DNA of 64,000 bases. Origin: Porphyromonas gingivalis ATCC 33277. GTDB lineage: Bacteria > Bacteroidota > Bacteroidia > Bacteroidales > Porphyromonadaceae. Of this stretch, positions 10,866 through 54,756 are shown piece by piece; position 1 is the stretch's first letter; each line of letters opens with the position of its first letter. Below the pieces are notes generated by a model. It was not told where the DNA came from. It did not search any database and saw nothing but the letters and a program-made list of their open reading frames with translations. The translations under genes and the position numbers were made by a program. The DNA lies in NCBI RefSeq assembly GCF_000010505.1, contig NC_010729.1, forward strand, positions 1,867,501 to 1,931,500. The letters run 5' to 3'.

Positions 10866-10979
10866 AACCAAACTATATAGTTTGACCAAACCAAAGTATA
10901 TAGTTTGGTTCAACCAAAGTATATAGTTCGGTCAGACCAAACTATATAGTTTAGTCAGACCAAAGTATATAGTTTGATT
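10866..10979. repeat. Array 1: five 23-bp tandem palindromes (CTATATAG core)
   Basis: Five copies of a quasi-palindrome with consensus CCAAA(C/G)TATATAGTTTGG. The TATATAG cores start at 10874, 10897, 10920, 10943 and 10966, an exact 23-bp period. Copies differ by substitutions on either arm. The array fills the 310-base gap between the ATPase and first permease genes. Confidence 0.9.
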
Positions 10980-41732: not shown

Positions 41733-41936
41733 ATAGTTTCTATTGCTGTCGGTAAAAAAATGAAGATTCTTCAAAATATACTGTAATAATGGAGTCTGCT
41801 TTACTGCCATTTATATGTGGTTAGGCTGTTTTCCCCTTCGTAATGACTCTTGATAGAACAGTAATGGCTAAGAAAAGGAAATTTTATCTCGAATTTCCTA
41901 ACCGTCCAAATTTTCCCGGACAGCAATAGATAGTTT
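41733..41936. mobile_element. MITE-like element, 190 bp, with 11-bp ends and 7-bp target duplication
   Basis: CTATTGCTGTC at 41740-41750 and its perfect reverse complement GACAGCAATAG at 41919-41929 bound 190 bases without a gene. Directly outside both ends stands ATAGTTT (41733-41739 and 41930-41936), a 7-bp direct repeat. That is the structure of a non-autonomous transposable element. Confidence 0.75.
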
Positions 41937-42016
41937 CACAGCCATGAAACTAAAGTTTCGTAGTAGTGAAACTAAAGTTTCTCGACTGTGAAAATAAAGT
42001 TTCTTAACTGTGAAAC
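41933..42016. repeat. Array 2: 22-bp tandem palindromes (GAAACTAAAGTTTC core)
   Basis: GAAAC half-sites start at 41946, 41968, 41990 (GAAAA) and 42012, and GTTTC half-sites at 41933, 41955 and 41977, all on a 22-bp period. The full unit is the 14-bp palindrome GAAACTAAAGTTTC plus an 8-base spacer. The array starts and ends in half units; the MITE-like element sits in the first one. Confidence 0.9.
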
Positions 42017-42055
42017 TTCTTGAAAGAAACGGAAGAAAAAATCTCGCAGACTTCT

Positions 42056-52626: not shown

Positions 52627-52707
52627 GCCTTCGGTATCAAGATCGGGACAGACTGCTTGATAAAATACGACTTCACGCCCGTTCAGGGTATAAACGAAAA
52701 TAGCACT

Positions 52708-53202
52708 ATGGGAAAGATAACAATCACGGTAGGCGATATTACTCGCTTCGAAGGAGATGCCATTGTCAATGCGGCGAATCATACCCTTTTGGGTGGAGGG
52801 GGAGTGGACGGAGCCATTCACCGAGCAGCCGGCCCCGAACTGCTGGAGGAGTGTCGCACTCTCAACGGTTGCCCAACGGGAGAAAGCAAAATAACGGGAG
52901 GATACAATCTGCCGGCGCAATACGTTATTCATACCGTAGGCCCTGTGTGGCATGGAGGGCAACATGGAGAGCCGGAGCTATTGGCTTCCTGCTACCGCAC
53001 ATCGCTGTCCATAGCCTTGGACAAGGGACTGAAATCCATTGCCTTCCCCTGCATCAGCACCGGCGTTTACCGTTATCCTAAAGATCAGGCCGCCCGCATT
53101 GCTTTGGCCACTATCGGGGAGATTATTGCAGATCGCCCCATTGACGTCACTATCGTGTGCTTCTCGGAAGCGGATAAGGAGTTTTATATCACACAGGACT
53201 GA
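52708..53202 (+). CDS. Macro domain protein (ADP-ribose/O-acetyl-ADP-ribose hydrolase type)
   Basis: A 164-residue single macro domain: [35 protein letters not shown] region (conserved Asn-Ala-Ala-Asn and the [10 protein letters not shown] loop), then [12 protein letters not shown]. This is the MacroD/YmdB-like class, which removes ADP-ribose from acidic residues or hydrolyses O-acetyl-ADP-ribose. The ATG at 52708 gives the normal N-terminus. No ADP-ribosyltransferase or sirtuin is adjacent. Confidence 0.92.
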
Positions 53203-53294: not shown

Positions 53295-53424
53295 ACCCCC
53301 CAAGGGTTCCCTTCCAAGATCCCTTAGGGATCCCTCCTGAGACCCCTAAGGGGTCCTACCCGAGACTCCTTAGGGGTCCCATAGGAGACTCCCCGGGGGT
53401 CTCAACAGGGACTCCTAAGGGATC
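53295..53424. repeat. Array 3: six 23-bp tandem palindromes (CCCTnAGGG core)
   Basis: Six 15-bp palindromes, such as GATCCCTTAGGGATC, GACCCCTAAGGGGTC and GACTCCCCGGGGGTC, centred at 53302, 53325, 53348, 53371, 53394 and 53417: an exact 23-bp period with 8-base spacers. Substitutions in one arm are often matched in the other. Confidence 0.92.
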
Positions 53425-53533: not shown

Positions 53534-53541
53534 TACATTTG
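53534..53541 (+). promoter_or_regulatory. -7 box (TACATTTG) of spt
   Basis: Exact TAnnTTTG match preceded by a T-run, 28 bases before the spt ATG. Confidence 0.6.
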
Positions 53542-53568: not shown

Positions 53569-54756
53569 ATGGGAAAATTGTTACAGGATAAATTGGCTCA
53601 GTATACCGAGCCGCAAAAGGCACAAGCCGCAGGTATTTACCCTTATTTCAGAAAAATCGAAAGTGATCAGGACACCGAGGTCGTTATCGATGGTCGGAAA
53701 GTCCTCATGTTCGGCTCCAATGCATATCTGGGACTGACGAACCACCCGAAAGTCAAGGAGGCAGCTATCGAAGCGACAAAGAAGTACGGTACGGGCTGTG
53801 CCGGCTCCCGGTTCCTCAACGGCACACTCGATATTCACCTCGAACTGGAAAAACGGCTGGCCGAGTTCGTCGGCAAGGAAGATGCCATCAGCTTCTCTAC
53901 CGGCTTCCAAGTGAATCTGGGCGTTGTCTCCTGCATCACCGGCCGCGAGGATTATATCATCTGGGACGAGTTGGATCATGCTTCGATCATCGAGGGTATT
54001 CGCCTTTCATTCAGCACGAAGTTAAAGTACAAGCATAATGATATGGGTTCTCTGGAGAAGCGGCTCCAGCAGTGCGACCCGGACAAGATCAAACTGATTG
54101 TGGTCGATGGTGTCTTCAGTATGGAGGGTGATGTCTGCAATCTGCCCGAAATCGTTCGCCTCGCCAAGCGATACAACGCCAATGTGATGGTGGACGAAGC
54201 TCACGGTATCGGCGTGATGGGCGACCACGGACGCGGCGTCTGCAATCACTTCGGTCTGACCGACGAAGTGGACTTGATCATGGGTACTTTCAGCAAATCT
54301 TTCGCTTCGCTCGGAGGGTTTATTGCAGGAGACAAGAGCGTTATCAACTACCTGCGCCACCACGCCCGATCCTATATTTTCAGTGCCAGCTGTACGCCGG
54401 CCTCTACGGCAGCGGCAGCAGCTGCTCTGGACATTATGCTTAGCGAACCGGAGCGTTTAGCCCGATTGTGGGAGCTGACGCACTACTCATTGAACGCATT
54501 CCGCAGTCTTGGATTCGAAATAGGTCATACATCGACACCTATTATCCCGCTTTTTATCCGCAACAACGAGAAGACATTCCAAATAACCCGAGACGCTTTC
54601 GAAGAAGGGGTATTCGTCAATCCGGTGGTCTCTCCGGCGGTAGCTCCGTCCGACACCCTTATTCGCTTTTCACTCATGGCTACGCATACGAAGGAGCAAC
54701 TCGACTTTGCCATCGAAAAGCTGCATAAGGTATTCAAGCAGAACGGTGTCCTGTAA
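53569..54756 (+). CDS. spt: Serine palmitoyltransferase
   Basis: A 395-residue PLP enzyme of the alpha-oxoamine synthase family, condensing serine with an acyl-CoA or acyl-ACP as first step of sphingolipid (dihydroceramide) synthesis. Seen: GSNAYLGLTNHPKVKEAA, GTGCAGSRFLNGTLDIHLELE, VDEAHGIGVMGDHGRG and the PLP lysine in MGTFSKSFASLGGF. A close relative, KBL (glycine acetyltransferase), shares these motifs, but the N-terminus GKLLQDKLAQYTEPQKAQAAGIY (in parts) and the species context support SPT. Sphingolipids of this organism influence host signalling. Confidence 0.92.
   Translation: MGKLLQDKLAQYTEPQKAQAAGIYPYFRKIESDQDTEVVIDGRKVLMFGSNAYLGLTNHPKVKEAAIEATKKYGTGCAGSRFLNGTLDIHLELEKRLAEFVGKEDAISFSTGFQVNLGVVSCITGREDYIIWDELDHASIIEGIRLSFSTKLKYKHNDMGSLEKRLQQCDPDKIKLIVVDGVFSMEGDVCNLPEIVRLAKRYNANVMVDEAHGIGVMGDHGRGVCNHFGLTDEVDLIMGTFSKSFASLGGFIAGDKSVINYLRHHARSYIFSASCTPASTAAAAAALDIMLSEPERLARLWELTHYSLNAFRSLGFEIGHTSTPIIPLFIRNNEKTFQITRDAFEEGVFVNPVVSPAVAPSDTLIRFSLMATHTKEQLDFAIEKLHKVFKQNGVL

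What the first reader, a model, noticed from the sequence alone, without database searches (positions are those of the whole stretch)
53295..53424. Six perfectly phased 23-bp palindromes upstream of spt; same geometry as two unrelated arrays
Six 15-bp palindromes with CCCT(T/A)AGGG-like hearts are centred exactly every 23 bp. Array 1 (10866, CTATATAG heart, 23 bp) and array 2 (41933, CTAAAG heart, 22 bp) have quite different sequence but the same plan: a 14-16 bp palindrome plus a 7-8 bp spacer. Shared geometry without shared sequence argues against simple copying of one element and suggests a process or protein that reads dyads at two helical turns, or a mechanism that makes palindromes locus by locus. 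Several substitutions are matched on the opposite arm (for example GATCCC with GGGATC next to GACCCC with GGGGTC), which hints at selection for pairing. P. gingivalis is known to carry a MITE with 22-23 bp minisatellite units (BrickBuilt); I cannot tell whether these are related.
Basis: partly seen in the sequence, partly recalled or inferred. Interest (0 to 1): 0.75.

Follow-up and report, generated by a model that had tools for sequence, protein, structure and literature searches.

The report
Phased palindrome arrays tied to HU-HIG genes
The six-palindrome patch is one scattered copy of a family of evenly spaced two-fold DNA sites; many such families, with different letters but the same 22-23-bp pitch, lie between genes and often beside genes for HU-like DNA-binding proteins, which are the likely readers.

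Summary
The array is real: five good dyads (GAYYCCNNNGGRRTC) centred 23 bp apart plus a decayed sixth. It is not BrickBuilt. It is one of five arrays of one family in this genome.

In 1.79 Mb sampled from 19 Porphyromonas genomes, four-dyad arrays lie mostly at 22 bp (41 of 68) or 23 bp (9), with many unrelated sequences. Base-pairing is not what is kept here: in this family the arms vary independently, which points to a protein reading double-stranded DNA.

The lead is the neighbour gene. Arrays lie upstream of HU-HIG genes (PF18291, HU fold) in 18 of 46 held cases against 49 of 963 control genes. Outside the genus, 15 of 72 HU-family loci have one beside the gene, against 0 of 210 control genes. 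This family's "home" copy precedes the HU-HIG gene at 502 kb (a transposase gene now lies between). The 22- or 23-bp pitch tends to follow the HU-HIG tree.

Best reading: each HU-HIG paralogue docks on its own family of phased dyads. Linkage is shown; binding and function are inferred. One pair of about 91%-identical HU-HIG proteins has different arrays, which counts against strict sequence pairing.

The parts
53295..53424 (.). array 3: phased dyads, 23-bp pitch; scattered member of the GAYYCCNNNGGRRTC family
   Evidence: homologues at G000 500786-500915, 657699-657759, 788406-788537, 1787608-1787743
53295..53309 (.). unit 0, decayed dyad (centre 53302)
   Evidence: 3 of 11 pairs
53318..53332 (.). 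unit 1 GATCCCTTAGGGATC (centre 53325, 7/7 pairs)
53341..53355 (.). unit 2 GACCCCTAAGGGGTC (centre 53348, 7/7)
53364..53378 (.). unit 3 GACTCCTTAGGGGTC (centre 53371, 6/7)
53387..53401 (.). unit 4 GACTCCCCGGGGGTC (centre 53394, 6/7)
53410..53424 (.). unit 5 GACTCCTAAGGGATC (centre 53417, 5/7)
52657..53202 (+). macro-domain protein gene upstream of the array
   Evidence: PF01661, E 3.4e-50; ORF; absent with the array at the P. loveana spt locus
53534..53541 (+). TACATTTG, matches the Bacteroidetes -7 element TAnnTTTG (recalled); likely spt promoter, about 110 bp beyond the array
   Evidence: same letters before spt in P. loveana, where the array is missing
53569..54756 (+). spt-like class I/II aminotransferase gene
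10869..10976 (.). array 1: five dyads CCAAASTATATAGTTTGG, 23-bp pitch; its family has a copy before the HU-HIG gene at G000 1574611
   Evidence: orthologue in P. gulae 116 of 117 identical
41932..42017 (.). array 2: GAAACTAAAGTTTC, 22-bp pitch, weaker; one partial relative at 135351

Best explanation
The array is a row of two-fold symmetric docking sites on double-stranded DNA, about one protein dimer per 22-23 bp. The likely reader is an HU-HIG protein (PF18291, HU/IHF superfamily). Each HU-HIG paralogue would have a home array beside its own gene (autoregulation) and, in many families, scattered relatives; array 3 is a scattered relative of the home array of the HU-HIG gene at G000 502070, array 1 of that at 1574611. 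SHOWN: the arrays, their preferred 22/23-bp pitch, their spread in the genus, the linkage of arrays to HU-HIG genes inside and outside the genus, the predicted HU fold of the protein, the tendency of pitch to follow HU-HIG clade, the lack of base-pair covariation in this family. INFERRED: that HU-HIG binds the dyads, that neighbouring dimers pack into one nucleoprotein row, that the home array serves autoregulation, and that scattered arrays let the protein bend, silence or insulate intergenic DNA. At spt the array lies upstream of a conserved promoter-like box and is missing in P. loveana.
For: Pitch: in 1,785,587 bases of 19 Porphyromonas genomes, periods 17-60 allowed, 41 arrays at 22, 9 at 23, 4 at 44, 3 at 41 and 11 over nine other periods; two dinucleotide shuffles gave 18 in all, one at 22, none at 23. 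Linkage: 18 of 46 held HU-HIG genes have an array (score >=23) within 700 bp upstream of the domain, 0 of 38 downstream, control genes 49 of 963; without two loci fetched through array hits 16 of 44; against control genes with an own upstream gap >=150 bp, 41 of 365, p 6e-5. Outside Porphyromonas 15 of 72 HU-family loci (13 of 61 longer than 115 aa, 2 of 11 shorter) against 0 of 210 control genes, 3 of 720 shuffled flanks, 0 of 72 at periods 25-29. Families with both a home array and other places: this one, array 1, BrickBuilt, CGATTTATATA, CTTTATACTATAAAG, AAACGTCTAGACGTTT (two short matches); in Taibaiella soli six other places. Pitch on the HU-HIG tree: 5 changes against 10.2 shuffled, 0 of 200; thinned set 3 against 6.4, 4 of 1000. 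Home array before the HU-HIG gene at 1825857: 120 of 122 identical to P. gulae, gene 479 of 516, DNA beyond 172 of 216. Protein: HU fold, best 4fmr, then HU/IHF; PF18291 E 2.9e-22. Half-site positions 6 of 144 changed, spacers 22 of 144, p 0.002.
Against: No binding data. The HU-HIG genes at 356 kb and 502 kb are 91.5% identical over 468 bp and share a 310-bp block at 92% (proteins 91% with the P. gulae orthologue of the 502-kb one), yet their arrays differ wholly: either few residues set specificity, or the protein reads geometry, or gene conversion made the genes alike. Three of 15 strong HU-HIG matches in G000 score only 17, three more 21-22. Five home arrays (L208, L211, L214, L043, L180) have no relative in the 384-kb sample. 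The best-hit subset alone (8 of 30) is p 0.02-0.07 against gap-matched controls, and those controls were scanned only inside their gap while HU-HIG windows were always 700 bp, which favours HU-HIG; some HU-HIG loci are orthologues or duplicates of each other. Outside the genus many arrays lie after the gene. Near-copies L253 (23) and L256 (22) disagree in pitch, as do L010 and L064. TTTCCAC and array 2 have no home array found. The spt array diverges faster (82.9%) than its flanks (90-96%). HU proteins mostly bind without sequence preference (recalled).
Confidence: 0.6

Rival explanations
1. The arrays act as RNA: rows of hairpins that stop, protect or process transcripts.
For: The + strand folds better than its shuffles (z -3.75); BrickBuilt authors predicted long stem-loops (PMC4596501, parts 1-4 of 9 read); two families of other species pair more than shuffled arms.
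Against: Arms vary independently in this family; no G-U bias, 41 against 49 in 27 sense-oriented arrays; orientation of 55 arrays, divergent 18, co-directional 29, convergent 8, is like that of 351 gaps >=150 bp, 94, 208, 49; no Rfam family near its gathering score; no terminator-like site called in the array.
Confidence: 0.1
2. Selfish minisatellites: tandem duplication plus spread by MITE-like elements, with no host reader. (Spread of this kind may also coexist with a reader.)
For: Unit gain and loss between species; BrickBuilt, CGAT and TTTCCAC arrays sit inside dispersed repeats of about 300-640 bp; the spt array evolves fast; several home arrays have no relatives in the sample.
Against: Does not explain one pitch for unrelated sequences, HU-HIG linkage, slower change at half-site positions, or the 98.4% home array. 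For family 1 and the spt copy of family 3 the homology ends at the array.
Confidence: 0.18
3. A repair process makes palindromes locus by locus (template switching in quasi-palindromes).
For: Dyads of many sequences; two families in other species show excess pairing.
Against: Predicts matched arms, which this family lacks; does not give a 22-23-bp pitch or HU-HIG linkage.
Confidence: 0.05
4. HU-HIG linkage is incidental: arrays and HU-HIG genes both gather in long or mobile intergenic regions.
For: Gap matching lowers the contrast in the genus (41 of 365 genes with a gap >=150 bp have an array; best-hit subset p 0.02-0.07; the match is imperfect and favours HU-HIG).
Against: Held loci 16 of 44, p 6e-5; G000 8 of 15, p 1e-4; replicate outside the genus, where sampled stretches had no array at 22-23 in 339 kb but 15 of 72 HU-family loci do; pitch tends to follow HU-HIG clade.
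Confidence: 0.13

Closest known systems
BrickBuilt MITE minisatellite of P. gingivalis (PMC4596501, parts 1-4 of 9 read)
   Same: 23-bp tandem units, intergenic, scattered, unit number varies; its unit is a near-dyad; the paper lists BrickBuilt_14 beside a DNA-binding protein gene (PF00216), probably the array before the HU-HIG gene at 961 kb
   Different: other consensus; no homologous leader or tail around array 3; no entry of its Table 1 names this locus's flanking genes
HU-HIG proteins (PF18291); expansion in Bacteroidetes described by Burroughs and co-workers 2017 (recalled, not seen; searches did not list it)
   Same: the linked genes are members by Pfam and predicted fold
   Different: no DNA target is known to me; the array linkage is what this report adds
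REP/BIME elements with RAYT transposases (recalled)
   Same: many short dyad families, each thought to go with one protein
   Different: no Y1 transposase (PF01797) match in this genome; strict 22-23-bp pitch
Plasmid iterons and partition arrays (recalled)
   Same: tandem sites near two turns apart, beside the gene of their binding protein
   Different: chromosomal, dyads, many families per genome
22-, 23- and 41-nt direct repeats noted in the W83 genome paper (known only as cited in PMC4596501)
   Same: probably include these repeats
   Different: dyads, pitch rule and HU-HIG link not mentioned in what I saw

Membership tests
BrickBuilt | 23-nt unit AGAYCATARTATCCTCTCRTRTG | tested here: not met
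   array 3 units are GAYYCCNNNGGRRTC plus 8-bp spacer
BrickBuilt | leader/tail with IS5-type terminal inverted repeats | tested here: not met
   homology of the spt copy to its paralogues stops at the array ends; TIRs themselves not searched for
BrickBuilt | listed loci | tested here: not met
   Table 1 has no entry naming a macro-domain or spt gene
REP with RAYT | Y1 transposase in the genome | tested here: not met
   0 matches in G000; 45 of 60 genomes searched in the order have one
Structured RNA family | Rfam match over gathering score, or covarying arms | tested here: not met
   (this family)
HU-HIG-linked phased dyad arrays (class proposed here) | four or more dyads at 22 or 23 bp | tested here: met
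HU-HIG-linked phased dyad arrays (class proposed here) | family has a copy beside an HU-HIG gene | tested here: met
   P. gulae L026: array ends about 50 bp before the HU-HIG gene; in G000 a DDE transposase gene lies between array and gene
HU-HIG-linked phased dyad arrays (class proposed here) | HU-HIG binds the array | not testable with these tools
   needs a binding assay
HU superfamily (for the linked protein) | HU fold | tested here: met
   model of the P. gulae orthologue, pLDDT 85.8; Foldseek 4fmr 2.7e-5, HU 5lvt 2.8e-4; profile match to 5eka 1.6e-9

The most novel reading that the evidence does not exclude
Bacteroidota carry a diversifying lock-and-key system: each HU-HIG paralogue owns a private family of phased dyad arrays, with pitch set by the protein clade and letters turning over freely, so that one genome runs several parallel nucleoid-protein codes that mark, silence or gather their own scattered sites.
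Probability: 0.35. Interest if true: 0.92.

Novelty: new variant of a known kind. Interest (0 to 1): 0.8.

Why it matters
HU proteins are textbook packers with little sequence choice (recalled). If many HU-HIG paralogues across Bacteroidota each read their own phased arrays, a large unexplained gene expansion gains targets, a set of 'junk' minisatellites (BrickBuilt included) gains a reader, and the question of what HU-HIG does becomes directly testable: mix one protein with its home array. The rule 'pitch kept, letters free' would also be an unusual form of DNA recognition.

Tried and rejected
BrickBuilt copy: sequence, flanks and loci do not fit. RAYT: none found in the genome. RNA: Rfam, covariation in this family, G-U bias and orientation negative; a good RNA fold is expected from dyads. 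A first pooled pairing test gave own arms 1636 against 1524 shuffled (sd 14), but its arrays were picked by dyad score, so I went on to homology-picked units and per-family tests: z runs from -1.0 (family 1) and -0.6 (this family) to 1.9 (CGAT, p 0.05), with G010 4.8 and G016 4.4 clearly positive, partly from the central TA/CG step and sub-families (my reading); most families are still dyad-picked. An attempt to fetch 20 wider HU-HIG regions failed. Literature: ten searches; by their listings none gave a paper on phased dyad arrays with HU-HIG, and one search gave 0 papers; a subscription paper could be missed. PMC2700814 (Geobacter, passages) was not alike. PMC5771137: passages only. PMC4596501: parts 1-4 of 9.

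Limits. My gene caller is a simple hexamer model. The 46 HU-HIG loci are those the tools handed back, not all matches; eight are G000 upstream pieces of 0.9 kb. Some control stretches of P. gulae and P. loveana were chosen around array hits, which raises the control rate; the arrays counted share that. Half-site classes were defined on overlapping units and the first spt unit pair is out of register, so 6 of 144 is approximate. The three orthologous family 3 arrays differ: spt 82.9% (flanks 90-96), 500 kb 90.8% (92 and 97), 788 kb 93.1% with 22 gap columns (82 and 96). For one search I dropped seven rows: L194 (21 bp) and L204, L039, L218, L228, L253, L282 as near-copies; L253 disagreed with its kept partner.

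Full report
OBSERVATION. Window 53295-53424 lies between a macro-domain gene and an spt-like aminotransferase gene, both on +. Five units match GAYYCCNNNGGRRTC without mismatch, centred 23 bp apart; a sixth at the left end is decayed. Arrays 1 and 2 exist; array 2 is weak.

NOT BRICKBUILT, BUT A FAMILY. A whole-genome search found paralogous arrays at about 500788-500918, 788406-788533 and 1787608-1787735; a pattern search added 657699-657759; one further match at 1201009 is a single unit. Unit order and spacers are shared between the spt, 500-kb and 1788-kb copies, so arrays were copied as wholes. For the spt copy homology ends at the array; the 500-kb and 1788-kb copies share one flank as well. 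Array 1 has four paralogues. BrickBuilt (PMC4596501, parts 1-4 of 9 read) has another unit and other loci.

SAME PITCH, OTHER LETTERS. I wrote a scanner that sums pairing over four dyads at every centre and period. In 384 kb of this genome (periods 16-40) 16 regions passed, all at 22 or 23 bp; one of them (L051 3274) has unlike units and is probably chance. With periods to 60, three 41-bp regions joined, which I take for PgRS repeats. Families include TTTCCAC-GTGGAAA, CGATYTATATARATCG, CTTTATACTATAAAG, BrickBuilt and those of the window. In stretches of 19 Porphyromonas genomes (1,785,587 bases) the 68 regions are 22 bp 41, 23 bp 9, 44 bp 4, 41 bp 3, others 11; two shuffles gave 18 in all, one at 22 and none at 23. 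Nine of the 19 genomes had no region at 22 or 23, most of them sampled for only 20-80 kb. A sister genus gave 1 in 200 kb and other Bacteroidales families none at 22-23 in 339 kb. Species have their own letters, e.g. GAGGGATATCCCTC or GACCTATATAGGTC. Of 61 arrays at 22, 23, 41 or 44 bp in seven genomes, 60 are intergenic by my gene calls, with orientations like those of all gaps >=150 bp.

PAIRING IS NOT WHAT IS KEPT HERE. In 52 homology-found units of this family the variable arm positions are independent: pair 3 C-G 20, T-A 6, C-A 18, T-G 6, other 2; pair 4 C-G 30, T-G 17, C-A 3, T-A 1, other 1. Shuffling arms gives z -0.6 here; the eight families range from -1.0 to 4.8, two of them (other species) clearly positive. 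In 27 sense-oriented arrays G-T mismatches are 41 and C-A 49. Yet conservation is two-fold symmetric, and between P. gingivalis and P. gulae half-site positions changed in 6 of 144 cases, spacers in 22 of 144 (approximate). That is what a dimer reading two half-sites on duplex DNA would leave.

DISPENSABLE AT SPT. P. loveana has neither array nor macro gene at spt but keeps the TACATTTG box. The spt array is 82.9% identical to P. gulae, its flanks 90-96%; array 1 is 116 of 117 identical, its flanks 86 and 98%.

THE NEIGHBOUR. Of 20 proteins, most of them flanking family 1 and 3 arrays, Pfam named two HU-HIG (PF18291), at L010 and L026. A genus search found matches in 26 of 26 genomes, 3 to 17 each, the weakest of ordinary HU size. 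In this genome, of 15 matches with E <= 2.5e-14, 8 have an array (score >=23) within 700 bp upstream: AAACGTCTAGACGTTT, AATAGTATATACTATT, CGATTTATATATAAATCG (twice, with 836 bp exactly duplicated), AAACTGACGACTGTTTT, CTTTATACTATAAAG, BrickBuilt, family 1. Two more score 22, one 21, three 17. The fifteenth, at 502070, has this family's array about 1.1 kb away behind a transposase gene, and about 50 bp before the gene in P. gulae. Over all 46 held loci 18 have an upstream array, against 49 of 963 control genes; downstream 0 of 38. Without the two loci fetched through arrays it is 16 of 44. Against control genes with a gap >=150 bp (41 of 365) p is 6e-5, for G000 alone 1e-4, for the best-hit loci alone (8 of 30) 0.02, or 0.07 with gaps >=250 bp; these controls were scanned only inside their gap, HU-HIG windows over 700 bp, and some HU-HIG loci are duplicates or orthologues, so the p values flatter.

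REPLICATION. A scan of named genomes with an HU-HIG alignment gave 80 loci. Of 72 outside Porphyromonas, 15 have an array within 600 bp of the gene on either side (13 of 61 with proteins over 115 aa, 2 of 11 shorter); controls 0 of 210 genes, 3 of 720 shuffled flanks, 0 of 72 at periods 25-29. When 17-30 were allowed the pitch was 22 (11) or 23 (4). Examples: Hoylesella pleuritidis CTACCCC-GGGGTAG and Taibaiella soli AACTAGTACGTACTAGTT before the gene, Parabacteroides ATCTGC-GCAGAT after it. The Taibaiella home array has six other places in that genome, the Hoylesella one has one.

SCATTERED RELATIVES. In the 384-kb sample, home arrays of this family, array 1, BrickBuilt, CGATTTATATA and CTTTATACTATAAAG have other places; five (L208, L211, L214, L043, L180) have none. 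L205's has none in the sample but two short matches elsewhere in the genome.

PITCH AND PROTEIN. On a tree of 32 HU-HIG proteins with arrays the pitch label needs 5 changes, shuffled mean 10.2, 0 of 200 as low. With seven rows left out (near-copies and the one 21-bp row), 25 rows: 3 against 6.4, 4 of 1000; without three long-branch rows, 3 against 6.2, 2 of 1000. Exceptions: the near-copies L253 (23) and L256 (22), and L010 (23) beside L064 (22). The home array of the HU-HIG gene at 1825857 is 120 of 122 identical in P. gulae, the gene 479 of 516, the DNA beyond 172 of 216.

PROTEIN. AlphaFold model of the P. gulae orthologue of the 502-kb protein: pLDDT 85.8, low only in the tail. Best Foldseek hit 4fmr, a Bacteroides vulgatus putative DNA-binding protein, then HU and IHF chains among the next rows. 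Pfam HU-HIG for all ten proteins, in and outside the genus.

AGAINST. In this genome the 356-kb and 502-kb HU-HIG genes are 91.5% identical over 468 bp and share a block of 310 bp at 92% on the far side of their arrays, but the arrays between are unrelated in letters and equal in pitch. This argues that letters and protein are loosely coupled, or that a few residues matter, or that gene conversion acted. No binding, expression or strain data were available.

VERDICT. The finding is real and larger than stated. The array itself is an ordinary scattered member of its family; the class it belongs to, phased dyads tied to HU-HIG genes, did not appear in the papers I could search.

Noticed in passing
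window 58276 (about 32 bp): single BrickBuilt-like unit, 87.5% identical to the array before the HU-HIG gene at 961 kb
   Followed up: no
L051 1568-1710, L047 3886-4258, L040 11961-12183: 41-bp repeats (probably PgRS) hold two alternating dyads; in the unit of L051 their centres are about 20.5 bp apart by eye, so they may be the same geometry with alternating letters
   Followed up: no
L035 2115-3014: DDE transposase gene (PF13612) between this family's home array and its HU-HIG gene in this genome; not between them in P. gulae
   Followed up: partly
G000 671496 and 1566631: two HU-HIG genes with 836 bp of upstream region exactly duplicated
   Followed up: no
G000 1787608-1787743: family 3 array copy whose flank resembles that of the P. 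gulae 500-kb HU-HIG locus, as if a home array had lost its gene
   Followed up: no
L225, L228, L242, L243, L265, L293: outside Porphyromonas several arrays lie just after the HU-family gene instead of before it
   Followed up: partly
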